Below, one piece after another: positions 1,141-15,700 of a stretch of 18,984 nucleotides of DNA. The notes under the pieces were generated by a model that was not told where the DNA came from, searched no databases, and saw nothing but the letters and a program-made list of their open reading frames with translations. The translations under genes and the position numbers were made by a program. This DNA comes from Pseudomonadota bacterium (GTDB lineage: Bacteria; Pseudomonadota; Gammaproteobacteria; Acidiferrobacterales; UBA6901), in contig JAJYEK010000062.1 of the NCBI GenBank assembly GCA_021785795.1, positions 1-18,984 of the forward strand, given 5' to 3'. The stretch's first letter is position 1; the number at the start of each line of letters is the position of its first letter.

Positions 1141-2384
1141 TGTTCGTCCGCAGGCTAGGCCAAATAGAGACCCGTATGGCGCTGATGCAGAGTGAGCTTT
1201 GCGGTACGACGCAATGCTCGTGGATGGTGGTGCTCGACGGGGTGGTCACGGTGAAATCGGTGCAGTTGGCCGCATATGACGTGTTTCTATACTATCAGGG
1301 CCTTCGCTGCTCAATCGCCGAGGATGAGGAGGGATTTTTCTTCGCCGAGCACGCGGATTGGAGCCGTATCGAAATAATCAGCCGAACCATCAAGGGGGAT
1401 GCCGACGTTCAAAGCGAGCGGCAAAGGTTGTTCACTGAGGAAGTCAATAGGCCGTTGCGGGCCTCAGATGCGCTATGGCGGCTGGTCGTGGTCATGGGGA
1501 AGGGCGAAACTGGCCTAATCATCACCGTCCATCACTCTATTGTCGATGGAACCTGCGCGACTTGGCTTCTGCAATGGTTACTGGAAGGGATTGACGTCAC
1601 GCTAGCCGGGGGCAAGTTGACCGACGCATGCCGGACCTTGGGTGCACCCATCGAGAGATATCTCCGCAAGACTCCCCTACCGGGGGATACGCCATCCTCG
1701 CGGCAAGCCGAAATTCCATTCGCCCTCTATCGTCCATTGGATGAGCGCAGGACAGCCATGATTTCCGCAGGGCTGGATGCAAGAGCCTATCGCGCTCTAT
1801 CCGCAAGAGTTGAGCGGGACGGGGTCACCACCAATTCGCTGATCGCGGCGGCAATGGCGAAGGCCACATCGGAATGTGGGATCGCCAAAGGGGCGATATC
1901 CATAAAGACGGCGGTATCTCTTCGACGTCTCGTACCGGATGGGGAGTGGGGGTGCTACCTGACTGTCGCGGGAGCAGATGTCGACGCGGAGGGGGGAAAC
2001 CTTGAGCAACTCGCGCACGCCTATCATACCGCGCTGATAGCACATGTCTACGAGCGCGGCATTCGGACGCAGGACTTTTCAGGAAGCACGATGCGGTATG
2101 CGATTAAGAAAATAGGTGAGCATCGGGTATTTGTCGATGGCGTGGGCTTGACCTATCTTGGAACGATCGAGTTGAAGAGAAACTTCCTCCATTTCAGACT
2201 GTCGGAGTACCACGCCTGCACCAATCGCAATGCGGGGAATGCCGCCTTCGTTCTGTCCGTGCGCGAGGGCGAGTCTGGTTTGATACTCAGCCTGACCTTC
2301 ACGGAGCCGCTGATGGAGCGGGAGCGGATGATCTGGTTAGGTAGTGCGATCACCAGGGTGCTTCGCACATATGCGGGCCAATAG
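1140..2384 (+). CDS. Stand-alone condensation/acyltransferase-superfamily protein (HHxxxDG)
   Basis: The 414-residue protein carries HHSIVDG at about 131-137, the active-site signature of NRPS condensation domains and of related free-standing acyltransferases (PapA5, alcohol acetyltransferase and WS/DGAT types). A later GLTYLG segment corresponds to the structural motif in the second half. The length suits one complete two-lobed CoA/ACP-dependent acyltransferase without adenylation or carrier domains. I chose ATG at 1140, which overlaps the upstream TGA (1138-1140); an in-frame GTG at 1137 is the alternative. Overlap implies translational coupling with the hydrolase. An acyl carrier protein follows 26 nt later, so this enzyme probably joins an ACP-bound acyl or aryl group to an amine or alcohol. 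The donor and acceptor cannot be read from the sequence. Confidence 0.8.
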   Translation: MFVRRLGQIETRMALMQSELCGTTQCSWMVVLDGVVTVKSVQLAAYDVFLYYQGLRCSIAEDEEGFFFAEHADWSRIEIISRTIKGDADVQSERQRLFTEEVNRPLRASDALWRLVVVMGKGETGLIITVHHSIVDGTCATWLLQWLLEGIDVTLAGGKLTDACRTLGAPIERYLRKTPLPGDTPSSRQAEIPFALYRPLDERRTAMISAGLDARAYRALSARVERDGVTTNSLIAAAMAKATSECGIAKGAISIKTAVSLRRLVPDGEWGCYLTVAGADVDAEGGNLEQLAHAYHTALIAHVYERGIRTQDFSGSTMRYAIKKIGEHRVFVDGVGLTYLGTIELKRNFLHFRLSEYHACTNRNAGNAAFVLSVREGESGLILSLTFTEPLMERERMIWLGSAITRVLRTYAGQ

Positions 2385-2410
2385 AAACCATTTCAGAGGG
2401 GTAATGAACC

Positions 2411-2677
2411 ATGGATCAGGAGCGTTTTTACGCCGTGTTGCGCGAATATCTGGTCGAGTGTCATCCGCGGGTCGATCCCGCTAGTATCGGGAAGGATGAC
2501 GACCTGTGGGGTCTGGGGCTTCTTGATTCGTTCGGCACGGTCGGTCTGTTATGCTTCCTCGAGGAGTTCATCGGCCATCGCATCCCTTTCGCTCATCATT
2601 CACCAAAAGTGTTCCACACGATGGCGCATATTTATCGGACCTTCGTGGCTGGTACGGAGGCTGTTGCTCCCGATTGA
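2411..2677 (+). CDS. Acyl/aryl carrier protein
   Basis: This 88-residue acidic protein has a canonical 4'-phosphopantetheine site, GLLDSFG, with Ser40 as the attachment residue, and helices of normal carrier-protein spacing around it (LREYL before, VGLLCFLEEF after). The GLLDSFGTV form resembles DltC-like and other dedicated carrier proteins more than the fatty-acid ACP form with DSL. AGAGGGG at about 2394-2400 serves as the ribosome site, 10 nt from ATG. It is the third gene of the plus-strand operon, behind the condensation-type protein that would use it. The AMP-forming ligase encoded at 12164-13684 is a candidate to load it. No terminator is visible after its stop. Confidence 0.88.
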   Translation: MDQERFYAVLREYLVECHPRVDPASIGKDDDLWGLGLLDSFGTVGLLCFLEEFIGHRIPFAHHSPKVFHTMAHIYRTFVAGTEAVAPD

Positions 2678-3247
2678 GCGAGAACACGGGTCTTTGTTTG
2701 ACGGGTGCTCCTCAAGCGGTCACGGGTGAGAGGGCGCCGTGCAGGGCGTCGACCTCAGCGAGGAGCCGGAGATCCTAGGGGGGTAGCGGCGGGCGAAGTG
2801 CCGGTGGGCCGCGGTGATCGCTGATGCGGCCACGCTCGCGGAACTGGGCGAAAAGGCTAGCAGGGCAAAAGGCTGTGCACTAGTCGATAATGCAGTCATG
2901 TGTTAGAGTTAACAAGGTATCTAAGGTAAGTGCGGCAATATTGATATGCAGTGATGGCGAACGTAGCTTTGCATACGAGGCTCCAGATGGGTGAGAGCTG
3001 ATCCAAGAGCTACGCTGACCCCATCGACACGGTTCTTCTGGCGGCGCCTCGACAGTCTTTAGCCGTATATCTATGACCCAGAAAGCTAGGCTGAGATCAA
3101 ACCATGTCGCTCACGTTGACAAAATGAGGTGTCGGTCTCTCCTTGCGTAAGGAGCTTAACTTTTGGCGCCGCTAACCGCATTTACCTGGATACCCCACTA
3201 AAGTTAAGTTCAATCATTGGTTGTGCTAATACCACGACCGCTAATTC
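2678..3247. other. 570-bp gene-free gap between acpP-like gene and trpE(G)
   Basis: I find no convincing gene here. The left part (about 2700-2870) is GC-rich, and read on the minus strand it gives broken frames ending in ...DALHGALSPVTA-stop. That looks like a decayed coding remnant, possibly a transposase tail, but I cannot identify it. The right part (about 2880-3247) is more AT-rich and must contain the promoter of the anthranilate synthase gene unless that gene is read from upstream. It holds TTGACA at 3116-3121 without a convincing -10 and a small hairpin CTCCTT-gcgt-AAGGAG at 3139-3154. I see no run of Trp codons, so no trp-type attenuator leader, and no lux box. Confidence 0.5.
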
Positions 3248-5431
3248 ATGAGGTTGGAAAAGGTGAGCATCTCAGCCGATGACGGCAAGACTTTTCATAC
3301 GTTCGGTGGGCTTGAAATCACTCGAACCACCCATGCGGCAGATTCTGAGGAGTTCAACCGCATCACCGCCTCTCTCGACAACTGCATTGGTATCCTATTG
3401 TCCTCGACCTATGAGGTGCCCTCACGTTATTCCAGATGGGATATTGGTTTTGTAAATCCTCCCCTTCAAATCACAGGAAAAGAACTTGGCTTTACGCTTG
3501 AAGCTCTTAATGAAAGGGGGGGTGTCCTGCTAAAATTCTGTCATTTCCTCCTTGAAGGATCGGCTCTCTGGGAGTTGACTGTGGATGATCGGAAGATACA
3601 AGGCCGAATTACCGCAAGTGGCACGCATGGTGCAGCCGAGGAATACCGGACACGAACCCCTTCGCTGTTCTCCGTCCTTCGTGCCCTCATGGAGGGTTTC
3701 CAGTCCGAACAGGATTCGACGTTGGGATTTTACGGCGCCTTTGGGTACGACCTAGTATTCCAGTTTGAACAATTAGAAAAAATGATTCCCCGCTCCCCGG
3801 AGCAGCGGGACATCGTCTTGTTCATTCCAGATAGAGTATTTGTCAGGGACAATATCGACAGCCTAGCCAAGGTCGTCGAATACGATTTCGTGTTCAGGGA
3901 GCACAGCACGCTGGGCAAGCACAGGGAAAACGTCAAAAGTCCTTATCATCCTTCTCCCGCACCGGTGGAATTATCTTCCGACCATCAGCCAGGTGAATTT
4001 GCCCAATGTGTCTGCACAGCCAAGGAAAGCTTTGCCCGCGGTGACCTATTCGAGGTGGTACCAGGTCAAACCTTCGCGAGAAGCATGCCCGTTTCCCCCT
4101 CTGCGGCTTTTCTCAAACTCCGCAACATCAATCCTGCCCCTTACGGATTTCTCATGAATCTCGGGGACAATGAATTCCTTATCGGCGCATCCCCAGAGAT
4201 GTTCGTGCGCGTCCAAGGTAGGCGTGTTGAAACCAGTCCCATCTCTGGTACGATTGCACGGGGAACGGACGCCATAGACGATGCCGTGCAAATTCAAACG
4301 CTGCTCAATTCATCGAAAGATGAAGCCGAGCTGACAATGTGTACCGATGTCGATAGAAATGACAAATCCCGTATCTGCGAGGCCGGCAGTGTGCGCGTCA
4401 TTGGCCGTCGTCAAATCGAGATGTATTCGCGGGTCATCCACACCGTTGACCATATAGAAGGCATCCTGAAAGAAGAATATGATTCCCTTGACGCCTTCAT
4501 AACTCATATGTGGGCGGTCACGGTGACGGGAGCACCGAAGCTCTGGGCCATCAAATTTCTCGAACGATATGAACGAACACCCCGTTACTGGTACGGAGGC
4601 GCGGTGGGGGTCCTTGGTTTCAATGGCAATATCAATACCGGTCTCACACTGAGGACGATACGTGTCAAGGATGGTGTGGCGCAGGTCCGGGCCGGGGCCA
4701 CCCTGCTTTATTTCTCCGATCCTGATGAAGAGGAGAACGAGACCAGGATCAAAGCCAAGGCCATGCTGGAAGCAATCGAGCCACCCAATGAGGAGGCGCG
4801 GGCTGCACCGCCCCCCAGATGTCTAAAGAGCCGACGGTTGAGAGCCCTCCTCGCGGATCACGATGATTCCTTCGTGCATACGCTTGCCAATTATTTTTCG
4901 CAGACGGGGCTCTCGATCGAAACATTCCGCTACAACAACGCCCTCTCCCACCTGAACGCGGATATTGATCTGCTTATACTTTCCCCTGGTCCCGGCAGGC
5001 CAGCGAATTTCGCTACAGACCGGCTGATCGACTCCGCACTAGCACTTGGCGTGCCTATATTTGGTGTTTGTCTTGGCTTGCAGGCGATCGTCGAATATTA
5101 CGGCGGGAAACTCGGACAGCTGTCCGTCCCTTGCCACGGCACGCCATCACGGTTAAAGCATGTCGGAACGGGCCTATTCCGCAATATGCCGCAGAATGTC
5201 ATTGTGGGTAGGTACCACTCACTCTACGCAGAACGTGAGTCGTTGCCCTCAGTCCTGAAAGAAACCGCTACGTCCGACGACGACATCATCATGGCGATAG
5301 AGCATGTAGGTGCTCCGGTCTGGGCCGTCCAGTTTCATCCTGAATCCATGCTCTCCGCCCGCCAGAACCGCGGCATGGAACTGATCTCAAATGTTGTCTC
5401 CCTGGTTGGGGGCGCTTCGAGGCGGACATGA
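3248..5431 (+). CDS. trpE(G): Fused anthranilate synthase TrpE(G), rhizobial type
   Basis: The 727-residue protein combines both anthranilate synthase components. Residues ~1-515 are the chorismate-binding TrpE part: SRYSRWDIGF near 60, PISGT at 331, the VDRNDK block, VTVTGAPK ending at Lys431, and YGGAVG. Residues ~530-727 are the glutamine amidotransferase: LSPGPGRP, GVCLGLQ with nucleophile Cys608, and QFHPES with His697 and Glu699. Size and motifs match the TrpE(G) fusions of rhizobia (about 729 residues), which turn chorismate and glutamine into anthranilate. Related ADIC/PhzE-type enzymes share this order, but the VTVTGAPKLWAIKFLE block favours the rhizobial anthranilate class. It probably supplies the local pathway rather than tryptophan synthesis, as no other trp gene is near. 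ATG at 3248 has no clear Shine-Dalgarno sequence, so the start is slightly uncertain. Confidence 0.92.
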   Translation: MRLEKVSISADDGKTFHTFGGLEITRTTHAADSEEFNRITASLDNCIGILLSSTYEVPSRYSRWDIGFVNPPLQITGKELGFTLEALNERGGVLLKFCHFLLEGSALWELTVDDRKIQGRITASGTHGAAEEYRTRTPSLFSVLRALMEGFQSEQDSTLGFYGAFGYDLVFQFEQLEKMIPRSPEQRDIVLFIPDRVFVRDNIDSLAKVVEYDFVFREHSTLGKHRENVKSPYHPSPAPVELSSDHQPGEFAQCVCTAKESFARGDLFEVVPGQTFARSMPVSPSAAFLKLRNINPAPYGFLMNLGDNEFLIGASPEMFVRVQGRRVETSPISGTIARGTDAIDDAVQIQTLLNSSKDEAELTMCTDVDRNDKSRICEAGSVRVIGRRQIEMYSRVIHTVDHIEGILKEEYDSLDAFITHMWAVTVTGAPKLWAIKFLERYERTPRYWYGGAVGVLGFNGNINTGLTLRTIRVKDGVAQVRAGATLLYFSDPDEEENETRIKAKAMLEAIEPPNEEARAAPPPRCLKSRRLRALLADHDDSFVHTLANYFSQTGLSIETFRYNNALSHLNADIDLLILSPGPGRPANFATDRLIDSALALGVPIFGVCLGLQAIVEYYGGKLGQLSVPCHGTPSRLKHVGTGLFRNMPQNVIVGRYHSLYAERESLPSVLKETATSDDDIIMAIEHVGAPVWAVQFHPESMLSARQNRGMELISNVVSLVGGASRRT

Positions 5432-5584: not shown

Positions 5585-6556
5585 TTACACTCCGATTAAC
5601 AGATCTTCGCATGGTGACTGGTGGGGTCGGGATGGAGATAATTCGGCTAGGACCTCGATTTCTATGCAGGCGCCATCGCGCGCAAGCTGGGAGAGGAATA
5701 CCTCGCCCACGGCGTTGGAGAGGTAGCCTGAGAGGGTTTTAGCTGCGATTTCTTCTACCTCCGCGCTCGTCACGAAGGCATGGTAGCCGCGAACCGAAGA
5801 AAGCCCCTTTCCGCAGAAAGACACGTATTCCGTGGTAACACCAGCATCAATCGTGAGATGAAGGAGATGTAACAGATCATGGATTGTATCACTAATACAT
5901 ATGTTGTTGCCTTCCCTTCCTTTCGCAGGCAGAATTCCTGAGAAAAATAATAAGCACTCGTCCCTTGAATGAACAGCGATGGCGCGAGAATAGGAAAGCG
6001 GGTTAGTTGTATATTTTTCTGGATCCAAGAGGCCAGGAATGCTTACTTGCGAGACACGGAGGATCGTGCTGCTCACGCCGTATGCGAGTACGGCGCTGGG
6101 GCCCAGATGTCGAATCCCCGTGCTCGCCGGGTACGGCGCACGGCCACTGCCGGACAGCCGTTCCCGGCGTGCATTCTCAAGATCCGTAGTGACTTCCACG
6201 GGATTTAGCAATACTCGCGTGAAGAAGGGGATGAAAGTCTTGTCGAGTGCATCTAGCGCCTTACCATAGGCAGATTGGACATTGTTGCTTTCCTCGAATG
6301 TGGCAGTGATGACTCTGTCGGCGTCCGCCCTCGCTCTTCGCGCAAAGAATATCCCCTTTGGCAGTCCGTTCTCGGAATGCAACATCTGAAGTTTCCTCTC
6401 GCCCTTAAATAGGCGAATCAGTTGGTCGTCAATGCGGGTGACGAGCCCAGTGATCAGGTCGAACATTTCAAGGTCGAGATGGTGAAGCGCGGCGCATGTG
6501 GAAACGACCCACTCTTCACCGCACAGATGTAAGCTAACGGCCTGGAATGTTTTCAT
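5585..6556 (-). CDS. Divergent chorismatase/RidA-fold-like protein
   Basis: The 323-residue protein has the C-terminal layout of the chorismatase family (FkbO, Hyg5, XanB2), enzymes that hydrolyse chorismate to dihydroxycyclohexadiene- or hydroxybenzoate-type products. Visible matches, judged from memory of FkbO, are PASTGI at ~143-148 (family PAATGIG), YTTNPLSYSRA at ~182-192, FFSGILPAKG at ~204-213 (family FISATAGILG) and a final CIEIE with Glu299/Glu301 (family LLVEIE, holding the catalytic Glu). The family's WNY...IN and FC.GR signatures in the middle are not recognisable, so substrate or chemistry may have changed. The chosen ATG at 6556 has GAAGAGG upstream and overlaps the end of the hydroxylase gene by 23 bp; ATG at 6580 is the longer option. 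It is last in the minus-strand operon and convergent with trpE(G), another chorismate user. Confidence 0.6.
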   Translation of the reverse strand: MKTFQAVSLHLCGEEWVVSTCAALHHLDLEMFDLITGLVTRIDDQLIRLFKGERKLQMLHSENGLPKGIFFARRARADADRVITATFEESNNVQSAYGKALDALDKTFIPFFTRVLLNPVEVTTDLENARRERLSGSGRAPYPASTGIRHLGPSAVLAYGVSSTILRVSQVSIPGLLDPEKYTTNPLSYSRAIAVHSRDECLLFFSGILPAKGREGNNICISDTIHDLLHLLHLTIDAGVTTEYVSFCGKGLSSVRGYHAFVTSAEVEEIAAKTLSGYLSNAVGEVFLSQLARDGACIEIEVLAELSPSRPHQSPCEDLLIGV

Positions 6557-8162
6557 TCGGCAAAACCTCTTCGCGATCAATGATGTATAGTGCGGTCAAT
6601 GCCAGGAGCGCGTCGCCACACGCGTCACCACCGGTACTGATCATCTCCACAAAGAAATCGGGGCGAATCAGTGCAACACCCGGGTCTGGAAAGCTACACG
6701 CATCCAACGCTGCCACGTTAGCGCGCCAAGCGACCCTCTCACCGAGGCAGTCTCGGAGCTGGGGATTGACGAAAACGACGATTTTGACGATCGCATCAAA
6801 ACTATCGCGTATCTGCGCCAAAGCCTCAGCCCAGCGCGGCCATTCCTTTCCCAGAGATCGCCCGTTCACAACAAGAATATGTTTTCCTTGCCAAAGCCGC
6901 CTTTCGTCTTCACTGGGGAGAATTACGTCAATGAAGGGGGCGATAGATTTTGGGCGCACGGCCCTCCCGGCCAGCCCCCCTAGACCATCGTCGTAACAAT
7001 GGGAAAATCCTGCCAAGTGATAGGGAATCGTGCGCAGATTAGGCCGGTTCCGCGCCTGCGGAAGCCAACGTTCTTCATCCTTTGGGGCATGTCGGGAAAT
7101 GAGCGATGTTAGGTGATCGGTCATAGACACCAAGCGCTGCGCCAGCGCTAGACGCTCCCCCTCGTAACTGCGCAAAAGTTTGGCATCGGAATGGCCTTTC
7201 ATAACATAGGCAAGCTTCCAACCCAGATTGAAGGCGTCACCAATGCCGGTGTTCATCCCAGACCCACCGATCGGACTGAAAAGATGCGCGGCGTCTCCCG
7301 CCAGGAAAACTTTTCCGGCCCCCGATAATGCCGAAGCCAGCCGGTTATAGATGGGTGCGCTTGAGACCCAAATTGGATCGGAAAGATGTAGGCGTTCTCC
7401 GACGCAAGCATTCACGGCGTCCTTCACATCATCAAACGTCACGGACCCCTTCTCGTCAAGTCGACCCTCGACGCTGACCACGATCCGGTGGTGTTGCCCG
7501 GTCAGTGGCAGAAGGACGAGGAAGGCGCTATCTTCGACGAAATAGAAGGCTTCATCCATCGGCCCATCCCACTCTACCCTAACATCCGCCAGAAGGAAGT
7601 GCATGGGATAGTCAAAGCCATTGAATGGAATACCAAGGCGCTGGCGGACGACGCTTCTGGCACCATCGCACCCGACCAAGTACGCGTATTTCTCGCGAAT
7701 TGTGGTACCGTTCGGGCAGAGCATAACCGCAGTGACACCCGCTTCGGTCGATTGGACATCGACGAGAGCAACCTCTCGCTCAATCTCGACCCCGACCTCC
7801 TGTAGCCTCGCGGAAAGTATTTCCTCAGTCACCGGCTGCGGCAGCATGATAAGGTGATTGTGGCGGTAGGCGAGCCTTTGCAGGCTAACCGCAGTAAGGC
7901 GATGTCCCCGCCAGAGGACCGTAGCCCGGTTGAGGCGACGCCCCCTATCGATGACCTGGGAGGCTACGCCGAGCATCTCGAAAATGTAGAGGGTGCTCGG
8001 GTTCACGGTGAGCGCCTTCGACCCTCCTCGCCGTTCGGTCGATTTATCAATCAGCCTTACGGGCACGCCATAGCTGTGGAGCTGGAGCGCGAGGGTCATC
8101 CCGATCGGTCCCGCGCCCACGATCAAGACTGTGTCCATCGCCGCCATGCTGTCGGTATCCAT
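6534..8162 (-). CDS. Class A FAD-dependent aromatic hydroxylase (PheA/TfdB-like)
   Basis: The 542-residue protein shows the three signatures of single-component flavoprotein monooxygenases: the FAD-binding GxGxxG (VLIVGAGPIG, ~12-21), the NAD(P)H-related DG motif (LVGCDGARS, ~162-170), and the GD motif (VFLAGDAAHLFSP, ~285-297) followed by GMNTGIGDAFNLGWKL. The C-terminal ~110 residues, ending with ALIRPDFFV, match the thioredoxin-like domain of phenol and dichlorophenol hydroxylases. The expected reaction is hydroxylation of an aromatic ring with O2 and NAD(P)H. Plausible local substrates are anthranilate or a chorismate-derived aromatic acid, which is inference. The start at 8162 lies 16 nt after the reductase stop but has no clear ribosome site; ATGs at 8147 and 8138 are possible. 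The soluble protein lacks membrane segments. Confidence 0.9.
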   Translation of the reverse strand: MDTDSMAAMDTVLIVGAGPIGMTLALQLHSYGVPVRLIDKSTERRGGSKALTVNPSTLYIFEMLGVASQVIDRGRRLNRATVLWRGHRLTAVSLQRLAYRHNHLIMLPQPVTEEILSARLQEVGVEIEREVALVDVQSTEAGVTAVMLCPNGTTIREKYAYLVGCDGARSVVRQRLGIPFNGFDYPMHFLLADVRVEWDGPMDEAFYFVEDSAFLVLLPLTGQHHRIVVSVEGRLDEKGSVTFDDVKDAVNACVGERLHLSDPIWVSSAPIYNRLASALSGAGKVFLAGDAAHLFSPIGGSGMNTGIGDAFNLGWKLAYVMKGHSDAKLLRSYEGERLALAQRLVSMTDHLTSLISRHAPKDEERWLPQARNRPNLRTIPYHLAGFSHCYDDGLGGLAGRAVRPKSIAPFIDVILPSEDERRLWQGKHILVVNGRSLGKEWPRWAEALAQIRDSFDAIVKIVVFVNPQLRDCLGERVAWRANVAALDACSFPDPGVALIRPDFFVEMISTGGDACGDALLALTALYIIDREEVLPNENIPGR

Positions 8163-8178
8163 ATATGAGAAACCCGGG

Positions 8179-9171
8179 CTAGCTTCTGAGGCTCACGGGG
8201 TAGCGGGCACCGCTAATCGCCGAAGGCGCGAACACGGCTTCAATTTCGACGAGGGCCCATTCCGGAAGCATGAGCGTTCCAGCGGCGAAGTTGCATATGA
8301 GATGCCTAGACGAAGTCGAGCTCGGGATAGCGCGTATGTGTTGTCCACCTTTGGAAAAAATCCAGGCCAAGGCCACTTGGGCACATTCAAGCTCCAGCTG
8401 TTCAGCGATACTCCGAAGACGTTCGACCAGCAACAGGTTAGCGTCTAGATGCTCATCCTGGAACCGCGGCAAATTTGCGCGCAGATCCTCGGCTGGGTCA
8501 AGACTACTGATGAATTGCTTGCTCAGGGTACCTGATAGGATTCCTCGACCGAGCGGGCTGAATGCGACCAATGGAATGCCGAGTCTGCCACAAGCGTTCC
8601 CCACATCCTGCTCAATCTCTCGTGACCACAGCGAGTACTCCGATTGGACTGCGGATATCGGATATTCGGTATTCGCCGTCTCCAGCGTAGAGGCCGACAC
8701 CTCGCACAACCCGATAGCGGCGATTTTGCCTTGGCGGACTAGGTCGCCAAGTGCCCCCACGCTCTCCGCTAATGGTACATTCGGGTCCTGGCGGTGGAGG
8801 TAGTAGAGATCAATCTGCTCGATCCCCAAGCGGCGGAGCGATGCCTCGCATGCATCACGAATGTACTCGGGACGCCCGTTGAGAACAAGACGGAATTTGT
8901 TCATTGGATCGCGAGTGATGCCGGTCTTCGATGCGATCAACACCCCTTCGCGACGGGACCCGATATCGGCGAGAAAACGACCTAGAAGCCGCTCGTTGTG
9001 TCCAGAACCATACATGTCCGCTGTATCAAAGTGACGATAGCCAATGTCATAGGCGCGGTGGAGCGCAGCCAAAGACTGGTTATCGTCACACGCCCCATAA
9101 AATTCGCTCATTCCCATGCAGCCGAGCCCGATGCGCGGCATCCGCTCGAAAAAAGAGGTTTCGGATATCAT
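8179..9171 (-). CDS. Aldo/keto reductase
   Basis: The 330-residue protein is a typical AKR barrel. IGLGCMGMSEFYG near residue 14 marks the start of the domain. The catalytic tetrad is Asp49 (HFDTADMYG), Tyr54, Lys82 (ASKTG) and His126 (LYYLHRQDP). SPLGRG and a C-terminal NADP-binding SSTSSRHL segment are also present. It would reduce a carbonyl with NADPH. Its ATG overlaps the stop of the HAD phosphatase gene in TAATG, so the two are translationally coupled. Next to the AfsA-like and HAD genes, it is a candidate for the reduction step of a butyrolactone-like or furan-like precursor. It is not homologous to the known A-factor reductase BprA as far as I can judge, so that role is inference. Confidence 0.92.
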   Translation of the reverse strand: MISETSFFERMPRIGLGCMGMSEFYGACDDNQSLAALHRAYDIGYRHFDTADMYGSGHNERLLGRFLADIGSRREGVLIASKTGITRDPMNKFRLVLNGRPEYIRDACEASLRRLGIEQIDLYYLHRQDPNVPLAESVGALGDLVRQGKIAAIGLCEVSASTLETANTEYPISAVQSEYSLWSREIEQDVGNACGRLGIPLVAFSPLGRGILSGTLSKQFISSLDPAEDLRANLPRFQDEHLDANLLLVERLRSIAEQLELECAQVALAWIFSKGGQHIRAIPSSTSSRHLICNFAAGTLMLPEWALVEIEAVFAPSAISGARYPVSLRS

Positions 9172-9857
9172 TAGAAGGTTTCTCCGGCTTGGCGTTCAAT
9201 CCATTGGCGTCCCCAATTCACAAGTTCGTCGCGGTAAGCAGGGCTGTTTTCGACCATACGCCCACTGCCAACCGCCGCGAGCATCGCCGCGTCGGTTACA
9301 TCATCGCCGAAGGCAACACACCGATCCAGCGGAATGCCTCGTCGAGAGGAAAAGGCCCTGATAACGTCGACCTTCTGCTCACCGATGCAGGGAGGACCAG
9401 CGAGCGCACCGGTATAGAAACCATCGACAACGTCCAACTGGGTGCACAGCACCGCGTCACAGGAAAGGGCCTGCCCTAAGGGTGTCACGACGGACGCGAA
9501 TGACCCTGTAACAAGAACCACCTCCGCCCCCCGCCTTTTTTGCGACTCGACCTCCCGCCTCATGTCATCTTTGAAAAACCCAGGCTGCGTGTTCACCTCC
9601 GTGAACCAAGCTTCTCCAAGTCGATCGAGCGTTTTCTCACTTTGTCCACGAAACAAGGTGTAATAGAAAGTGTTCAGCGTCTGCCGTTCGGTTTTTGTCA
9701 CAATGAGATTGCGCAAGTGTGTGCAGTATTCGGAAAACCATGCTTGATCATCCAACTCGTAATGGTGTCGGAAGTATTCCAAGAAGCTGAGTAAGCTGTT
9801 TTTATTTATGAGCGTACCATCAACATCAAAGAATGCGATGTATGCCTCGTTAGCCAT
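9171..9857 (-). CDS. HAD-superfamily phosphatase (SerB-like, subclass IB)
   Basis: The 228-residue protein has all four HAD motifs: FFDVDGTL with Asp11 (nucleophile) and Asp13, VTGS at 116-119, Lys162, and FGDDVTD with Asp185/Asp186/Asp189. A helical cap lies between motifs I and II, as in HAD-IB enzymes such as phosphoserine phosphatase and its small-molecule relatives. It should remove a phosphate from a small metabolite in the cytoplasm. Its start overlaps the end of the AfsA-like gene by 8 bp, and its stop overlaps the reductase start by 1 bp, so the three are produced together. In Streptomyces furan and butyrolactone pathways a phosphatase works directly with the AfsA/MmfL enzyme, which has dihydroxyacetone phosphate as co-substrate. 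That makes this assignment attractive but unproven. Confidence 0.88.
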   Translation of the reverse strand: MANEAYIAFFDVDGTLINKNSLLSFLEYFRHHYELDDQAWFSEYCTHLRNLIVTKTERQTLNTFYYTLFRGQSEKTLDRLGEAWFTEVNTQPGFFKDDMRREVESQKRRGAEVVLVTGSFASVVTPLGQALSCDAVLCTQLDVVDGFYTGALAGPPCIGEQKVDVIRAFSSRRGIPLDRCVAFGDDVTDAAMLAAVGSGRMVENSPAYRDELVNWGRQWIERQAGETF

Positions 9858-10587
9858 ATTTCTTGTCTTGTCCTCTCGACGCGACCATGGTCGAAGCTGC
9901 GGCGGCTAGGCGCCTCTCCTGACGCTCTGCGGCATACCTGTCATGCAGTTCAACCGAAATCAGGGAGGACACTACGACCAAATCCTGCTGTAAGAACTCG
10001 AAGCCAAAGCGAATGGACTCCCGACGTGACTTCACAATTTGCCGCTGCAAAATCCGGCAGATGATTGTGGTTTCGACGGGAAAAGTAGCATGCATGAAGT
10101 CCATCTGAATTGAGGACCAGAGGAAGCTGCAACCATTGGGAAAATTTTTAGAAAAAAACTTTTCAATGACTGCCAAGCCCATTTGGCGCACCACCTCAAT
10201 AAGGATCATCCCAGGCAGATGCTGCCCACCGACGTGATCACTAAACAATTCAGATCGGTCATCAAGCAGAACGCTGGCTTCGTACGTATTTACATCCAGT
10301 TGCACCGGCAACGACAGAATAGAGTTCTCCGGTTTCAACTTGTGCACCTCCGCAGGCCCACATTTCGTTACCTCTTCGAAGAAGAACCGGCCACGCTTTC
10401 CTTTGATGGTCGCTAGCTGTAGGAGGTGGCCGATCCGATCGGCACCGACACCTTGACCCAGCACAAAAACCTCGTCCTCCAATAAACCGCCATTCTCCAG
10501 GCTGTTCTCAAGTTCACCAATGCAAACGACCGTTTCGTTTTTGGCGAACGCTTCGAATCTATCGCCAACGACAACCACCACTCTCAT
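9850..10587 (-). CDS. AfsA-like (A-factor biosynthesis) hotdog-domain protein
   Basis: The central part of this 245-residue protein carries the AfsA hotdog signature: SDHVGGQHLPGM at ~116-127 followed by IEVVRQMGLAV (Glu131, Arg134, Gln135). In AfsA/MmfL this domain condenses a beta-ketoacyl-ACP with dihydroxyacetone phosphate to start gamma-butyrolactone or furan signal synthesis. The same domain also has the fold of FabZ-type dehydratases. Classical AfsA has two such repeats over about 300 residues. Here the first ~75 residues (MRVVVVVGDRFEAF..., then VLGQGVGADRIG) do not look like a hotdog and I cannot name them. The start is supported by AGGGAGA 5 nt upstream. The gene overlaps the phosphatase by 8 bp, and a 61-bp gap separates it from the upstream methyltransferase. 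Confidence 0.75.
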   Translation of the reverse strand: MRVVVVVGDRFEAFAKNETVVCIGELENSLENGGLLEDEVFVLGQGVGADRIGHLLQLATIKGKRGRFFFEEVTKCGPAEVHKLKPENSILSLPVQLDVNTYEASVLLDDRSELFSDHVGGQHLPGMILIEVVRQMGLAVIEKFFSKNFPNGCSFLWSSIQMDFMHATFPVETTIICRILQRQIVKSRRESIRFGFEFLQQDLVVVSSLISVELHDRYAAERQERRLAAAASTMVASRGQDKKYG

Positions 10588-10648: not shown

Positions 10649-11209
10649 CTACTTTATTCTGTGGATATTTAATAAATGTGTATGGTCACGATATCTGTAT
10701 TTCTTTTCGTATAGAAGATCGAACGGCATAATTATTTTATACCATTCAGCTATATGGCACGTCAGGAGCGTGGAGACCGGAGCGGAAAGCTGCCGGATAA
10801 TCGAGATAATCTTACCATAGTCCGTGCCAACCCATTTGTCGTAAAGAACCCCAGTAATACAAATCAAATCAAATTTCTCACCAACACACAGTGAGACAGC
10901 GTTCTGGATAGAGCCGCATAGGAATACGGCATTTGGTATTCCTCTATTCGACGCGTAGTCAATGGCTTTGCGCGAAATATCGATCCCGACGATTCTGTCA
11001 CCTGGTAGATGTTGGGTCATGAACCCATTTCCGCAGCCGATATCTAAGACGTTTATCGGCTTAAGGCTCTGTGTCGCGATCTTCATTTCGGCGACTCTTT
11101 TATAGTCCCAGAAATTATCCTCGTACGACCACGGATCAGGCGAGTCATACATTTCTTCCAGCTCCGCCGTAATCTGTTCGATCATAGATATTTCCTGTGA
11201 TTGCATCAT
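10649..11209 (-). CDS. SAM-dependent methyltransferase (NodS-like class I)
   Basis: The 186-residue protein has a class I methyltransferase core: motif I VLDIGCGNGFMT (~54-65), the acidic end of strand 2 in GIDIS (Asp77), and FDLICITGVL as motif IV. DSPDPW...YK before motif I resembles NodS-like N-methyltransferases. It would methylate N or O on a small molecule using S-adenosylmethionine. I chose ATG at 11209 because GAGGAAG lies 7 nt upstream and just after the dioxygenase stop; the longer frame from 11269 would overlap that gene. The gene is much more AT-rich than its neighbours (30% GC across 10681-10740, near its 3' end), which points to a separate origin. At 186 residues it is short for the family, and the C-terminal end (LLNIHRIK) may be trimmed. 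Confidence 0.85.
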   Translation of the reverse strand: MMQSQEISMIEQITAELEEMYDSPDPWSYEDNFWDYKRVAEMKIATQSLKPINVLDIGCGNGFMTQHLPGDRIVGIDISRKAIDYASNRGIPNAVFLCGSIQNAVSLCVGEKFDLICITGVLYDKWVGTDYGKIISIIRQLSAPVSTLLTCHIAEWYKIIMPFDLLYEKKYRYRDHTHLLNIHRIK

Positions 11210-11229
11210 ATCGCAACTTCCTCTGTATT

Positions 11230-12174
11230 TCAGTCGGTTGATTCCATGTTGCTCCAGAGTACAGGGCAAACATCAGGGTCAGTATAGTCAGGGTGCCCAT
11301 CAAGCGTTCGGCAGAGATAGTCATGAGAATATACGAATGGGCGACCGTCTACCAAGTGTCTTTGATAGGTATTATCTTCATCTTGCAAATGAATTGCCAA
11401 TGCAATACGGGGTTTATTTGATAAATTGATGCCGCTAGAGTGTAAGGTTAAACAATGATGTACACTCATATGGCCAGCTGGTACGGACGGGCAAACTTCG
11501 CTTGTTTCAAACCCGAGATTGGCTAGTCGTGAATTCAATTTATGATGGTCATCACAGATAAAATTTTTTTCTGAGCGCAAGAGCCGGAGATCTTCTCGAT
11601 CCTCCCAACGGTGACTGCCATTGATGAAACGTAAACCACCGTTCGCTTCATTCGCGTCCTGCATGGGGATCCAAACGGTCAGCATATTGGTGGAAGTGCA
11701 TGTCGGCCAATAGGCATGATCGGTATGCCAGCCGACACGCTCGTCACCGCTTTTCCTGATGCCGTAAGGGGGTTTGTAGATGAGAGAACTGTTGAAGAGC
11801 CTTACCGTTCTGGTATTGGCTAGCCGCGCAGCGGTCGCGCCCAACAACGGATTCTCAAGCAGTCGCCTAATCTTTTCGCTCTGCAGAGCGATGAAGTCGT
11901 TAATCCGGATATGGTCAGGCGAACCGGGTTTCCAATCCAGATAACTCCTGCTTTTGTCCGACCATAGCCGGACATCTCGCCTGCCCGCATAGATCTCGTC
12001 CGCAGCCTTTATGGCGAGCGCGATCTCTGCGTCCGAAAATATTCTTCTCGTCACGACATGCCCATTGGCCGCATAAGCGTCAATTTCCCGTGCATTCGGC
12101 AACGCCTGCTCATCATTGTGCCGGATTGGTCTGATCGATAAACGGGGTAGGAATTTGATCTGCCTAGCATTCAT
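11230..12174 (-). CDS. Phytanoyl-CoA dioxygenase (PhyH) family Fe(II)/2-oxoglutarate oxygenase
   Basis: The 314-residue protein shows the PhyH facial triad: His150 and Asp152 in GWHTDHAYWP, and His245 in LTLHSSGIN, with Arg256 (NKPRIAL) placed to bind 2-oxoglutarate. WIPMQDANEANGGLRFINGSH is the usual middle strand pair of this family. It should hydroxylate, desaturate or cyclise a substrate using O2 and 2-oxoglutarate, as many secondary-metabolite tailoring enzymes do. It overlaps the upstream ligase gene by 11 bp, so coupled translation is likely, and 20 nt separate it from the methyltransferase. The substrate is not readable from the sequence. Confidence 0.9.
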   Translation of the reverse strand: MNARQIKFLPRLSIRPIRHNDEQALPNAREIDAYAANGHVVTRRIFSDAEIALAIKAADEIYAGRRDVRLWSDKSRSYLDWKPGSPDHIRINDFIALQSEKIRRLLENPLLGATAARLANTRTVRLFNSSLIYKPPYGIRKSGDERVGWHTDHAYWPTCTSTNMLTVWIPMQDANEANGGLRFINGSHRWEDREDLRLLRSEKNFICDDHHKLNSRLANLGFETSEVCPSVPAGHMSVHHCLTLHSSGINLSNKPRIALAIHLQDEDNTYQRHLVDGRPFVYSHDYLCRTLDGHPDYTDPDVCPVLWSNMESTD

Positions 12175-13701: not shown

Positions 13702-14313
13702 TTATGAATGCGTAGCGAAGTGACACTGCGTGATTGATAGCAGCGAATAACCCGGATTTGAACTCAACGGCTCAATCCAGCATGCGAATATCGGATGCCC
13801 ATCAATAATCATCGGCGGCCCTGCACGATGTGCGTGAAATTCGGATCGAGACAACAACCGCTCCACGCCGATCGGCGACACCGTGATCAACCGTTTCGCT
13901 CCGTGCGAGACTGCGCAGGCGATGGATTCTTCCAATAGTTTTCGCGCAACCGAGGAGGAAAACTGCCCTGGTGTCCTGGCCCGGTTATTCAAATCCACGG
14001 CCGCGAAGCGCGACAGCTCCCAGACATCGGGAGAACATGGCGGTGCCAGTCCATTAAGCAATTGGGGAAAAACCTCGCCCAACAGGTAGGGGCGCGTGGT
14101 CGGGAGGAGGCGGGCACAGCCGGAGACATGGCCTTGGTCGTCTTGCGCGACCACATACACGGTGTCTGGTCGGTCGAACTGGTCCGACTCCATCCCGTTC
14201 TCCGTGTGCAACGCCCACCCCAATTGCTCGACAAAGACTTGATGGCGGTAACCCGCCACCTTCGCATACAGATTACTCGGTAAAACTTCAGCTGGCCCGG
14301 ATATAATCTGCAT
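13702..14313 (-). CDS. luxI: LuxI-family N-acyl-homoserine-lactone synthase
   Basis: The 203-residue protein has all nine hallmark LuxI residues at the usual spacing: Arg23, Phe27, Trp33, Asp44, Asp47, Arg68, Phe82, Glu99 and Arg102. Characteristic blocks are VFVEQLGWAL, DQFDRPDTVYV, GCARLLPTTRPYLL and WELSRFAAVD, close to CepI-type enzymes as I recall them. It makes an AHL signal from acyl-ACP and SAM; the acyl length cannot be predicted here. A strong GGAGG 5 nt before ATG fixes the start. A lux box lies 60 nt upstream. The last 20 residues (SSNP...FATHS) differ from those of the copy at 1-162, and the switch is exactly where the 107-bp identity ends, so the 3' end may be recombinant. The ligase gene follows 17 nt after the stop. 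Confidence 0.95.
   Translation of the reverse strand: MQIISGPAEVLPSNLYAKVAGYRHQVFVEQLGWALHTENGMESDQFDRPDTVYVVAQDDQGHVSGCARLLPTTRPYLLGEVFPQLLNGLAPPCSPDVWELSRFAAVDLNNRARTPGQFSSSVARKLLEESIACAVSHGAKRLITVSPIGVERLLSRSEFHAHRAGPPMIIDGHPIFACWIEPLSSNPGYSLLSITQCHFATHS
13763..13869 (-). repeat. Right arm of the perfect 107-bp inverted repeat, inside luxI
   Basis: Exact reverse complement of 1-107. Beyond 13869 the right copy continues as normal luxI sequence, but the partner would lie outside the window. On the 13762 side the two copies share nothing further. Confidence 0.97.
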
Positions 14314-14373: not shown

Positions 14374-14400
14374 AGCTGTCAACCTTGACAGCTTGTCAAG
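14374..14400. promoter_or_regulatory. lux box upstream of luxI, with an overlapping third half-site
   Basis: Bases 14374-14393 read AGCTGTCAA-CC-TTGACAGCT, a perfect 20-bp palindrome of LuxR-binding type, 60 nt before the luxI ATG. A second palindrome, CTTGACA-gct-TGTCAAG (14384-14400), shares its right half, giving three alternating half-sites. The array covers the TGA stop (14396-14398) of the rsaM-like gene. LuxR-AHL binding here would activate luxI and the operon behind it. No convincing -10 is seen at standard spacing. Confidence 0.85.
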
Positions 14401-14827
14401 TGTATCTATCCATGATATGCAGCCGGACTGCGGCCTGCCAGGCCGTCTTGTCGATGGCCGCTTCCAGTAGTTTGGCCGTGTTGGCGGGACCCAGGTCCCG
14501 CCGCAGGTCATCCACCAGCATGATATTGCTTCGTGGTAAACCCGTCCGGAGATAGCGGGCCTGTCCTGACGCCCCTTCCATCCGCCAGTCCCACCCCAGA
14601 GTGATGACGGGCGCCGTCTCGCTGACCCATTCGGTATAACCGGAAATATCGGTCTGGCTGGCCCCTTCGTGAAGAGGGAGGGGTTCATCCGGGTCCAGGC
14701 CGGATAAAAGATGCACCAAGGGAATCGCCTGAAACTGTTCCAGTGTCAGGCGCACATAACCATCGGGAGACAACCTCATGAATCCATGTCCTTGCGGCCT
14801 TACCGCGATTCCATTCTGCACTGTCAT
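14396..14827 (-). CDS. RsaM-like (DUF4902) quorum-sensing modulator
   Basis: The 143-residue protein has GYVRLTLEQFQAIPLVHLL near 23-41, GYTEWVS at ~63-69 and LGWDW at ~77-81, features I associate with the RsaM/DUF4902 family found between luxI and luxR in Burkholderia and some Pseudomonas. A similar small gene sits between afeI and afeR in Acidithiobacillus ferrooxidans. RsaM proteins damp or balance AHL production by a mechanism that is not settled. I chose ATG at 14827, with AGG 8 nt upstream; a GTG at 14833 has no good ribosome site. The gene reads toward luxI with its stop inside the luxI lux-box array, and has its own lux box 58 nt upstream. The family call rests on recalled motifs. Confidence 0.75.
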   Translation of the reverse strand: MTVQNGIAVRPQGHGFMRLSPDGYVRLTLEQFQAIPLVHLLSGLDPDEPLPLHEGASQTDISGYTEWVSETAPVITLGWDWRMEGASGQARYLRTGLPRSNIMLVDDLRRDLGPANTAKLLEAAIDKTAWQAAVRLHIMDRYT

Positions 14828-14885
14828 GATCACCTGCCAGGAAAATTCGGATAGGAACAGGCTACCGAATCACCCCATGATGCGG

Positions 14886-14905
14886 TAGTGTCAACCCTGA
14901 CAGGT
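14886..14905. promoter_or_regulatory. lux box in the divergent rsaM-like/luxR region
   Basis: On the minus strand the site reads ACCTGTCAGGGTTGACACTA and matches the luxI box at 15 of 20 positions, with the same TGTCA/TGACA half-sites and 4-nt spacer. Its distance to the rsaM-like ATG (58 nt) almost equals that of the luxI box to its gene (60 nt), so its main target is probably the rsaM-like gene. luxR, starting 81 nt away on the other side, may also be affected. Confidence 0.75.
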
Positions 14906-14986
14906 TGATTAGGCTATATCCACGGCGTGCCCCGGTTGGCGGTGCTTTTTCCCCACGGCCTCGCGCTGCCCGAGAAGGAGGGACAT

Positions 14987-15700
14987 TTGGACCCCTGGAA
15001 GGAAGATCTCCTACAGACATTCCAGTCCATCGACTGCGAACGGCAGGTGCTTGCCATGGTGGCCGAGTTGGCGCGCAAGCTGGAATTCGATTACTGCGCC
15101 TACGGGTTACGCATGCCGCTCCCGCTTGCACGCCCAAAAACCGCCCTGTTCAGCAACTACCCTGCGGTCTGGCAGGCCAGATATCAAGCGCAGGAATACC
15201 AGGCTATCGATCCCACGGTACGGCATGCCATGCGTTCGCCGTCTCCCGTCATCTGGTCCGATGACCTGTTTGCGCCCGCGCGCGAGCTATGGGAAGAGGC
15301 CCGTTCTTTTGGCCTACAGGCCGGGCTGGCCCACACTTGCCGCGATGCCAGCGGGATGGGCGGCATGTTGACACTGGCGCGCGCTGGAGAAACCGTTACC
15401 ACAACCGAGTGGCAAGCAAAGGCCTGCCATATTTCATGGTTGGTCCAGGCCGTTCATCTCTGCATGGTCCGCATTGCAGCGCCCAAACTCTTGCCGGAGA
15501 TCGCCGTACAACTGTCTCGCCGAGAGGTGGAGGTACTACGCTGGACCGGCGAGGGCAAGACCTCCGGCGAAATCGCCGAAGTCCTCAACATCACGGAGCG
15601 TACGGTCAATTTTCACATCGGCAAGACCATGACCAAGCTGAATGCCGTCAACAAGACCGCCGCCGTATTGCGGGCGGCGATGCTCGGGCTGCTGTCGTGA
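14987..15700 (+). CDS. luxR: LuxR-family AHL-responsive transcription factor
   Basis: The 237-residue protein has an N-terminal autoinducer-binding domain with Trp62, Tyr66, Asp75, Pro76, Trp90 and Gly113, the pocket residues conserved in TraR/LuxR. The C-terminal GerE helix-turn-helix follows (LSRREVEVLRWTGEGKTSGEIAEVL...RTVNFHIGK, with Glu180, Leu184 and Gly190). It should bind the AHL made by LuxI and activate at the two lux boxes. I chose TTG at 14987 because AAGGAGG lies 5 nt upstream and the protein then has normal family length; GTG at 14927 would add 20 residues but lacks a ribosome site. It is divergent from the rsaM-like gene and convergent with the relaxase gene, with only 23 bp between the stops. 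Confidence 0.93.
   Translation: MDPWKEDLLQTFQSIDCERQVLAMVAELARKLEFDYCAYGLRMPLPLARPKTALFSNYPAVWQARYQAQEYQAIDPTVRHAMRSPSPVIWSDDLFAPARELWEEARSFGLQAGLAHTCRDASGMGGMLTLARAGETVTTTEWQAKACHISWLVQAVHLCMVRIAAPKLLPEIAVQLSRREVEVLRWTGEGKTSGEIAEVLNITERTVNFHIGKTMTKLNAVNKTAAVLRAAMLGLLS

What the first reader, a model, noticed from the sequence alone, without database searches (positions are those of the whole stretch)
8179..10587. AfsA-like, HAD phosphatase and reductase genes coupled in an AHL-linked operon
The three genes overlap (8 bp and 1 bp), so they are produced together. In Streptomyces an AfsA/MmfL condensing enzyme, a HAD phosphatase and a reductase are the core set for gamma-butyrolactone or furan signals made from a beta-ketoacyl-ACP and dihydroxyacetone phosphate. 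Finding this set in a proteobacterial operon directly behind luxI suggests a second small-molecule signal, or a butenolide-like part of a larger product, made on AHL command.
Basis: partly seen in the sequence, partly recalled or inferred. Interest (0 to 1): 0.78.

Follow-up and report, generated by a model that had tools for sequence, protein, structure and literature searches.

The report
Butenolide-type synthesis genes in luxI operon
A plasmid-like DNA fragment, probably from a proteobacterium, carries a three-enzyme set related to the one Streptomyces uses to make butenolide and butyrolactone molecules, placed inside an operon headed by a quorum-sensing signal gene, and it more likely makes a secreted product such as an antibiotic than a second signal.

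Summary
The three genes are real, overlap by 8 and 1 bp, and encode a PF03756 (AfsA) protein, a HAD-IB phosphatase and an aldo/keto reductase (AKR). They are not directly behind luxI: an AMP ligase, a PhyH oxygenase and a methyltransferase lie between. A perfect lux-box-like palindrome precedes luxI; a flavin monooxygenase and an orphan gene follow.

The AfsA protein is not a canonical two-hotdog ScbA/BarX enzyme but a single-hotdog form with an N-terminal domain; I gathered 82 proteobacterial and actinobacterial loci. In 68 of 82 a HAD relative lies within 5 kb; in 23 of 82 the locus holds HAD and AKR relatives. The Ruegeria pomeroyi member is in a published cluster needed for diffusible killing, and Chromobacterium subtsugae has a published AHL-upregulated AfsA–HAD-IB pair, so neither module nor AHL control is new.

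I read it as a module making, dephosphorylating and reducing a phosphorylated butenolide for a secreted, AHL-induced product. No ScbR-type receptor matched in the window, and at least five Streptomyces loci carry canonical ScbA/ScbR besides this module. New here: physical inclusion in a luxI operon beside a MobF relaxase gene, with other tailoring genes. New variant of a known kind.

The parts
9850..10587 (-). short AfsA-type, putative phosphorylated-butenolide synthase (245 aa): N-terminal alpha/beta domain (about 1-72), one hotdog (about 73-218), C-terminal helix
9171..9857 (-). HAD-IB phosphatase (228 aa)
   Evidence: TIGR01490 121 bits over 98.3; PF12710; motifs DVDGT, VTGS, GDDVTD; scores highest against HADs near AfsA genes
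8179..9171 (-). aldo/keto reductase (330 aa)
   Evidence: PF00248 219.6 bits; 46% identical over 312 residues to the AKR of the R. pomeroyi locus; its best match is AfsA-linked in 9 of 10 chosen genomes
6534..8162 (-). flavin monooxygenase, PF01494 (542 aa), 16 bp after the AKR gene
   Evidence: 246 bits; nearest solved relatives are rifampin monooxygenases and polyketide oxygenases; a relative lies within 5 kb of AfsA in L003, L013, L020, L036, L043, L061
5585..6580 (-). orphan protein, 331 aa (start codon unsure; relative P0003 begins at residue 9), last gene of the run
   Evidence: no Pfam, NCBIfam or PDB match; one 98% relative, P0003; fold prediction failed, pLDDT 31
10649..11269 (-). SAM-dependent methyltransferase (NodS-like) upstream of afsA
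   Evidence: PF13847 47.6 bits, NodS 33 bits; DIGCGNG; 61 bp before afsA
11230..12174 (-). PhyH-family oxygenase
   Evidence: PF05721 82.7 bits
12164..13726 (-). AMP-dependent acid ligase (acyl or aryl acid, substrate unknown)
   Evidence: PF00501 136.8 bits and PF13193; nearest solved relatives are oxalate-, succinylbenzoate- and coumarate-CoA ligases and luciferases
13702..14313 (-). LuxI-type AHL synthase, first gene of the run
   Evidence: PF00765 89 bits; 70% identical to a Sulfuriferula nivalis plasmid LuxI; motif residues
14376..14391 (.). lux-box-like perfect 7-2-7 palindrome CTGTCAACCTTGACAG, 62 bp upstream of the luxI start, next to a promoter-like element
   Evidence: -35/-10-like hexamers at 14374-14347, minus strand
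14888..14903 (.). second copy of the palindrome (2 mismatches) between the DUF4902 gene and luxR
   Evidence: 3 matches against 0.15 expected, one of them the reverse reading of the first site
14396..14833 (-). DUF4902 protein, also next to luxI in L108 and L109
   Evidence: PF16245 163 bits; DUF4902-luxI order
14927..15700 (+). LuxR-type AHL receptor
   Evidence: PF03472 145.5 bits and PF00196 67.5 bits

Best explanation
The three genes form a short-AfsA / HAD-IB / AKR module that builds a butenolide- or furan-type unit for a secreted specialised metabolite. Inferred chemistry: the AfsA-type enzyme condenses a beta-ketoacyl (or 3-oxo-aryl-acyl) thioester with dihydroxyacetone phosphate to a phosphorylated butenolide; the HAD-IB enzyme removes the phosphate; the AKR reduces a carbonyl; the flavin monooxygenase, PhyH oxygenase and methyltransferase decorate the product; the AMP ligase activates an acid precursor. 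LuxR with AHL made by LuxI switches the operon on through the palindrome at 14376. Shown here: gene identities, motifs, gene order, recurrence of AfsA with HAD-IB and AKR, the palindrome. Inferred: the substrate, the product, the sequence of steps, and that the product is a weapon-type metabolite rather than a pheromone.
For: Family membership and intact motifs. HAD relatives in 68 of 82 short-AfsA loci, all within 5 kb, none at 5-10 kb in 672 kb looked at. The window HAD scores higher against HADs near AfsA genes than against the other HAD-IB proteins of the same genomes. The window AKR's best match is AfsA-linked in 9 of 10 chosen genomes. AfsA and HAD trees are correlated, r 0.79, 0 of 999 permutations. 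Nearest AfsA neighbours L003, L005, L013 carry HAD plus AKR and/or the flavin monooxygenase. The R. pomeroyi relative (L001) lies in the megaplasmid cluster needed for diffusible killing (PMC7426152 passages). An AfsA-like domain was shown in vitro to condense 3-ketothioesters with DHAP (PMC7756379 passages). An AfsA-HAD-IB pair is strongly upregulated with quorum sensing in C. subtsugae (PMC12114271 passages). Lux-box-like site. No ScbR-type match in the window.
Against: No ketosynthase was found among the window's annotated genes, so the beta-ketoacyl substrate must come from elsewhere. The window proteins are distant from every studied relative (AfsA 27%, HAD 33% to R. pomeroyi). The place of the window HAD in its own tree is unsure, and its nearest rows differ from those of AfsA. 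The AfsA grouping with L003/L005 has only 89% SH-aLRT and a stem of 1.38. In R. pomeroyi afsA is also needed for transcription of its cluster, so a signalling role there is not excluded. The free-standing single-hotdog form has not been assayed in anything I read. A profile of the family also matches FabZ dehydratase sequences in the PDB (E 6.4e-5), so a different hotdog chemistry is not excluded by sequence. No relative's product structure was found.
Confidence: 0.6

Rival explanations
1. The set makes a second diffusible signal (butyrolactone, butenolide or furan type) layered under AHL control.
For: In Streptomyces, AfsA-family enzyme + phosphatase + reductase sets make signals (SabA/P/D in passages; mmfL/P/H in passages). 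R. pomeroyi afsA is needed for transcription of its own cluster. In 7 of 82 loci (Rhodospirillales, Kiloniella and related) the AfsA-HAD pair lies near a hybrid histidine kinase, a possible receptor.
Against: No ScbR-like match in the window. The rest of the operon (acid ligase, two oxygenases, methyltransferase) is larger than a minimal signal set. At least five Streptomyces loci (L062, L064, L068, L069, L076) hold canonical two-domain ScbA and a ScbR-like regulator besides the short AfsA and a HAD, so the signal role is already filled there.
Confidence: 0.2
2. The AfsA-like enzyme uses another phosphorylated sugar or ketose instead of DHAP, so the product is a furanone or cyclopentanone of a different type.
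For: A pentulose-using butenolide synthase is proposed in methylenomycin biosynthesis (MmyD, AvrD-like; PMC12593393 passages). The single-hotdog form differs in architecture from two-domain AfsA proteins.
Against: MmyD is described as AvrD-like in that paper, not as AfsA. The AfsA residues are kept, and the PBS domain assayed in PMC7756379 took DHAP.
Confidence: 0.12
3. The three genes are leftovers or generic enzymes whose neighbourhood is accidental, with no joint pathway.
For: HAD and AKR families are large: the HAD-IB model matches in 10 of 14 control genomes (over its cut-off in 2). The window's HAD branch is long.
Against: Overlapping reading frames, recurrence (HAD and AKR both in 23 of 82 loci), and the preference of the window's HAD and AKR for the AfsA-linked copies.
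Confidence: 0.05

Closest known systems
Ruegeria pomeroyi DSS-3 megaplasmid AfsA cluster (L001; SPOA0342 region of PMC7426152)
   Same: single-PF03756 AfsA aligning from its N-terminus (27% identity), HAD-IB (33%) and AKR (46%) within 6 kb, on a large plasmid of a proteobacterium. That L001 is the paper's cluster is inferred from replicon and gene content; the old tag is not in the record I saw
   Different: No window match to its two flanking hypotheticals, tautomerase, CMD, LysR or MFS proteins; adjacency here is AfsA-HAD-AKR in one run; the window adds LuxI/LuxR, acid ligase, PhyH, methyltransferase and flavin monooxygenase
Chromobacterium subtsugae quorum-regulated AfsA - HAD-IB operon (U6115_04635/04640; PMC12114271)
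   Same: AfsA and HAD-IB adjacent, strongly upregulated with AHL quorum sensing, log2 fold change 8.9 and 9.2
   Different: In the passages I saw the AHL synthase gene csuI pairs with csuR elsewhere, the operon runs on into an efflux pump, and no AKR is named. I compared through the paper only, not its sequences
Streptomyces two-domain AfsA/ScbA/BarX systems
   Same: PF03756 hotdog; the ExxRQ motif of both ScbA halves aligns to E131-R134-Q135
   Different: two tandem hotdogs and a neighbouring ScbR receptor in the four loci fetched (L110-L113, 4 of 4, out of 162 records matched); NAD(P)-binding reductases there
Gladiostatin/gladiofungin AfsA-like (PBS) domains of Burkholderia gladioli PKSs (PMC7756379, PMC7756420)
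   Same: proteobacterial AfsA-family enzyme used for a product, with candidate phosphatases encoded in the cluster (passages)
   Different: there a C-terminal domain of a modular PKS; here a free-standing protein without PKS
Burkholderia sp. E7m39 locus L005
   Same: AfsA - HAD - AKR in the same order and strand; near the window in the AfsA tree
   Different: no LuxI match in the locus; RND efflux genes upstream

Membership tests
AfsA family (PF03756) | PF03756 above gathering score | tested here: met
   59 bits against 24
AfsA family (PF03756) | conserved DH..G.H..GM...E..RQ block | tested here: met
   E and RQ align to both halves of ScbA
AfsA family (PF03756) | condensation of beta-ketothioester with DHAP | not testable with these tools
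   needs enzyme assay
ScbA/BarX two-domain GBL synthases (NF041195) | score over the equivalog cut-off, two tandem hotdogs | tested here: not met
   25.5 bits against 200; one AfsA domain, one hotdog in the model
Streptomyces GBL signalling system | ScbR/ArpA-type receptor gene nearby | tested here: not met
   three ScbR proteins against all window ORFs of 60 aa or more: no match at 1e-4
R. pomeroyi-type AfsA cluster | short AfsA + HAD-IB + AKR | tested here: met
R. pomeroyi-type AfsA cluster | two flanking hypothetical families | tested here: not met
   both L001 hypotheticals against the window ORFs: no match at 0.01
HAD-IB phosphatases | TIGR01490 over cut-off; DxDGT, GDxxxD | tested here: met
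   121 against 98.3
FabZ dehydratases | match to a FabZ family model | tested here: not met
   only AfsA-type models listed up to E 10. But the fold is FabZ-like, and against PDB sequences FabZ appears at E 0.15 for the protein and 6.4e-5 for the family profile: distant kinship
LuxR-controlled operon | lux-box-like palindrome before luxI | tested here: met
   binding itself not tested

The most novel reading that the evidence does not exclude
Short AfsA + HAD-IB + AKR is a phylum-crossing biosynthetic cassette for antagonistic butenolide-type products, distinct from pheromone AfsA, and is wired to whichever regulator the host has: ScbA/ScbR in some Streptomyces, other regulators such as LysR types in Ruegeria, and here LuxI/LuxR, with the AHL synthase as first gene of the product operon on a mobilisable plasmid. 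The acid ligase, flavin monooxygenase, PhyH enzyme and perhaps the convergent anthranilate synthase / carrier-protein genes make an unknown aryl- or anthranilate-bearing butenolide.
Probability: 0.35. Interest if true: 0.68.

Novelty: new variant of a known kind. Interest (0 to 1): 0.5.

Why it matters
AfsA-type clusters outside Actinobacteria tend to be labelled butyrolactone signals. The pattern here (a short AfsA with HAD-IB and AKR, no ScbR-type receptor match in the window, embedded in a quorum-controlled operon) argues that some are product pathways instead. One LuxI-headed operon offers a small, inducible, testable example of chemistry that in R. pomeroyi is tied to killing of competitors and whose compound I did not find described in the papers I searched.

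Tried and rejected
Own-genome search: none is held for the window. The homologue search for AfsA in 5.8 billion proteins gave only the window itself and P0002 (57%). The operon has no near DNA match among plasmids (phages and E. coli genomes not searched). The orphan 5585-6580 was suspected from memory to be a chorismatase; that got no support from Pfam or NCBIfam at E up to 10, from PDB sequences, or from a fold (pLDDT 31), so the idea is dropped. Creamer et al. 2021 is not held; I saw only its reference entry and one sentence citing it in PMC12114271. PMC10041152 (passages) has no mention of butyrolactone or of the afsA tag. PMC8719888 (passages) lists an A-factor-like cluster in a Pseudomonas strain that lacks the reductase. 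Terminator scan: 8 found against 8.5 expected, no information. The flavin monooxygenase as a fixed part of the module is only partly supported: the AfsA-linked copy is the best genome match in 4 of 7 chosen genomes. In one search two control HADs (L120, L118) were printed as unlinked; searches show that both lie beside an AfsA gene, and that L128, printed there as linked, does not. Of 30 HAD loci 27 ORFs were extracted and 23 gave a hit; L124 (the L003 copy) was extracted in a wrong frame.
Full report
WHAT IS THERE. The three genes exist as described: 8179-9171, 9171-9857 and 9850-10587 on the minus strand, overlapping by 1 and 8 bp. They score as an aldo/keto reductase (PF00248, 219.6 bits), a HAD-IB phosphatase (TIGR01490, 121 bits against a cut-off of 98.3) and an AfsA protein (PF03756, 59 bits against 24). 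The same strand carries luxI (13702-14313), an AMP ligase, a PhyH oxygenase and a methyltransferase upstream of the three, and a flavin monooxygenase and an orphan protein downstream. Junctions in the whole run are overlaps or gaps of at most 61 bp. So the set is in what looks like the luxI operon, but not directly behind luxI: three genes intervene.

CONTROL BY AHL. Upstream of luxI, at 14376-14391, lies CTGTCAACCTTGACAG, a perfect 7-2-7 palindrome of lux-box form. Perfect 7-2-7 palindromes number 4 in the window against a mean of 1.5 in 200 simulated sequences, but the CTG...CAG form averages 0.04. The looser pattern CTG-N10-CAG alone is not significant (6 against 4.5 expected). Searched with 3 mismatches the full motif gives 3 matches (one of them the reverse reading of the same site) against 0.15 expected, and none of 200 shuffles reaches 3. 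The other site, 14888-14903, lies between the DUF4902 gene and luxR. A promoter-like pair of hexamers abuts the first site (13 such pairs in the region against 7.3, sd 2.6, so single ones mean little). DUF4902-luxI pairs in front of or beside other biosynthetic genes occur on plasmids of Sulfuriferula nivalis (LuxI 70% identical) and Burkholderia stagnalis. LuxR binding itself is untested.

A WIDESPREAD MODULE. A scan of the species-genome collection with a four-row alignment gave 80 loci (81 relatives, the best 80 kept); with the R. pomeroyi and S. clavuligerus plasmid loci that makes 82. Relatives of the window's HAD occur in 68 of 82, 51 within 2.5 kb and 17 at 2.5-5 kb, none at 5-10 kb although 672 kb were available there; AKR relatives occur in 24 of 82, together with HAD in 23, and with HAD and a flavin-monooxygenase relative in 5 (in L005 that last relative lies about 10 kb from AfsA). 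Some loci are cut by contig ends. 14 of 82 show no HAD relative. No relative of the window's LuxI was found in any of the 82; 9 of 12 chosen genomes have a LuxI gene somewhere, so the physical link to luxI is the window's own feature in this sample.

ARE THE HAD AND AKR THE RIGHT ONES? I fetched 30 HAD-IB loci from 8 genomes, extracted 27 ORFs and scored them against the window HAD; 23 gave a hit. With labels corrected, the eight that lie within 5 kb of an AfsA gene (seven near a short AfsA, one about 4 kb from a two-domain one) take ranks 1-8 (70.7-118.1 bits); the other 15 score at most 66.9. The copy of L003 (L124) was mis-extracted and is not in this count. For the AKR I searched 10 genomes, chosen because they hold a short AfsA, 9 of them with an AKR in the locus: in 8 of these 9 the best match is the one in the AfsA locus; in G017 the one in the locus is second; in the tenth (G009) the best match is on the AfsA contig about 15 kb away (contig lengths checked for those not otherwise known). 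For the flavin monooxygenase the linked copy is best in 4 of 7 chosen genomes. AfsA and HAD distance matrices correlate (r 0.79, 68 rows, 0 of 999 permutations as high), part of which is shared descent of the hosts.

PHYLOGENY, AND WHAT SPEAKS AGAINST. In the AfsA tree of 83 rows (L074, 149 aa, left out) the window and P0002 join Parachitinimonas L003 and Burkholderia L005 at 89% SH-aLRT, then Thalassococcus L013 at 82%, neither starred, on a stem of 1.38. L005 has AfsA-HAD-AKR in the same order; L003 has AfsA, flavin monooxygenase, a KASIII-like protein, HAD, an MFS transporter and AKR. In the HAD tree the window is a long branch (1.81) with no supported place, and its nearest rows are Actinobacteria. 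The two trees do not agree on the window's neighbours.

SIGNAL OR PRODUCT? Four ScbA/BarX loci fetched from Streptomyces plasmids (L110-L113, of 162 records matched) all have a ScbR receptor within about 2 kb. Three ScbR proteins find nothing in the window's ORFs. Among the 82 short-AfsA loci 19 have a ScbR-like match (E 1e-4, some may be generic TetR), and at least five (L062, L064, L068, L069, L076) hold both a two-domain ScbA and a ScbR-like regulator besides the short AfsA and a HAD. There the short form seems to have a second, different job. The R. pomeroyi locus L001 is, by replicon and gene content, the cluster in which transposon insertions abolish diffusible killing; there afsA is also needed for transcription of the cluster (PMC7426152, passages). 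In Chromobacterium subtsugae an AfsA and a HAD-IB gene rise with log2 fold changes of 8.9 and 9.2 with quorum sensing and are co-expressed with an efflux pump (PMC12114271, passages). AfsA-like PKS domains make butenolides for gladiostatin and gladiofungin, and one was reconstituted with DHAP (PMC7756379 and PMC7756420, passages). Against a pure product reading: in 7 of 82 loci a hybrid histidine kinase lies near AfsA-HAD (one representative was scanned and scores best against NahK-type models, below their cut-off), which would suit a signal. I weigh product about three to one over signal for the window.

MECHANISM PROPOSED. AHL accumulates; LuxR activates at the palindrome; the operon is transcribed. 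The ligase loads an acid; a beta-keto thioester from fatty acid synthesis or from elsewhere meets DHAP on the AfsA protein; HAD removes phosphate; AKR reduces; the oxygenases and methyltransferase finish. Only the gene identities, motifs, order, recurrence and palindrome are shown here. No ketosynthase turned up in the window: none among the family matches of the genes scanned, and two KASIII proteins and a thiolase from related loci find no window ORF at 0.01. The substrate is unknown, and the last gene has no known relative but one 98% copy.

NOVELTY. AfsA genes in proteobacteria and quorum control of an AfsA-HAD pair are in print (above). My nine literature searches listed no paper that I recognised as describing an AfsA gene inside a luxI operon; I saw listings for most and passages of seven papers, and most subscription journals are not held, so this is weak. 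The combination on a plasmid-type backbone (MobF-type relaxase at 15724-18651, GC 0.64-0.69 against 0.47-0.58 across the operon) is a new variant of a known kind. Membership: AfsA family yes; ScbA/BarX no; Streptomyces signalling system no; R. pomeroyi-type cluster by its three enzymes, but without its two flanking hypotheticals.

Noticed in passing
window 322-5431 (+): Alpha/beta hydrolase, condensation-domain/PapA5-like protein (weak, below cut-offs), 88-aa carrier-protein-like ORF and a fused TrpEG-type anthranilate synthase (1029 bits, cut-off 645) run towards the luxI operon; they may supply anthranilate or a carrier to the same product.
   Followed up: partly
window 5585-6580 (-): Orphan protein with a single 98% relative and no family, PDB or fold match.
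   Followed up: yes
L004, L006, L009, L010, L017, L021, L023: AfsA-HAD pairs with a hybrid histidine kinase close by: a possible signal and sensor set in Rhodospirillales and Kiloniella.
   Followed up: partly
L062, L064, L068, L069, L076: Two-domain ScbA and ScbR-like genes and the short AfsA with HAD lie in one locus, suggesting two AfsA forms with different jobs.
   Followed up: partly
L018:10832-11671, L038:9336-9992 and relatives (neighbour clusters 2 and 3): Two protein families whose representatives have no Pfam match accompany short AfsA in 40 and 37 of 82 loci; the R. pomeroyi copies find no match in the window.
   Followed up: partly
window 15724-18651 (-): MobF/TrwC relaxase of higher GC beside the operon, so the operon is probably plasmid cargo.
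   Followed up: partly
L002, L040, L065, L071, L078, L081: A subgroup of short AfsA without a HAD relative but with a large PPDK/PEP-utilising-type protein nearby: perhaps a different pathway variant.
   Followed up: no
L018 and L048 (one Salinarimonas ramus genome): Two short AfsA loci in one genome, each with its own HAD-IB gene.
   Followed up: partly
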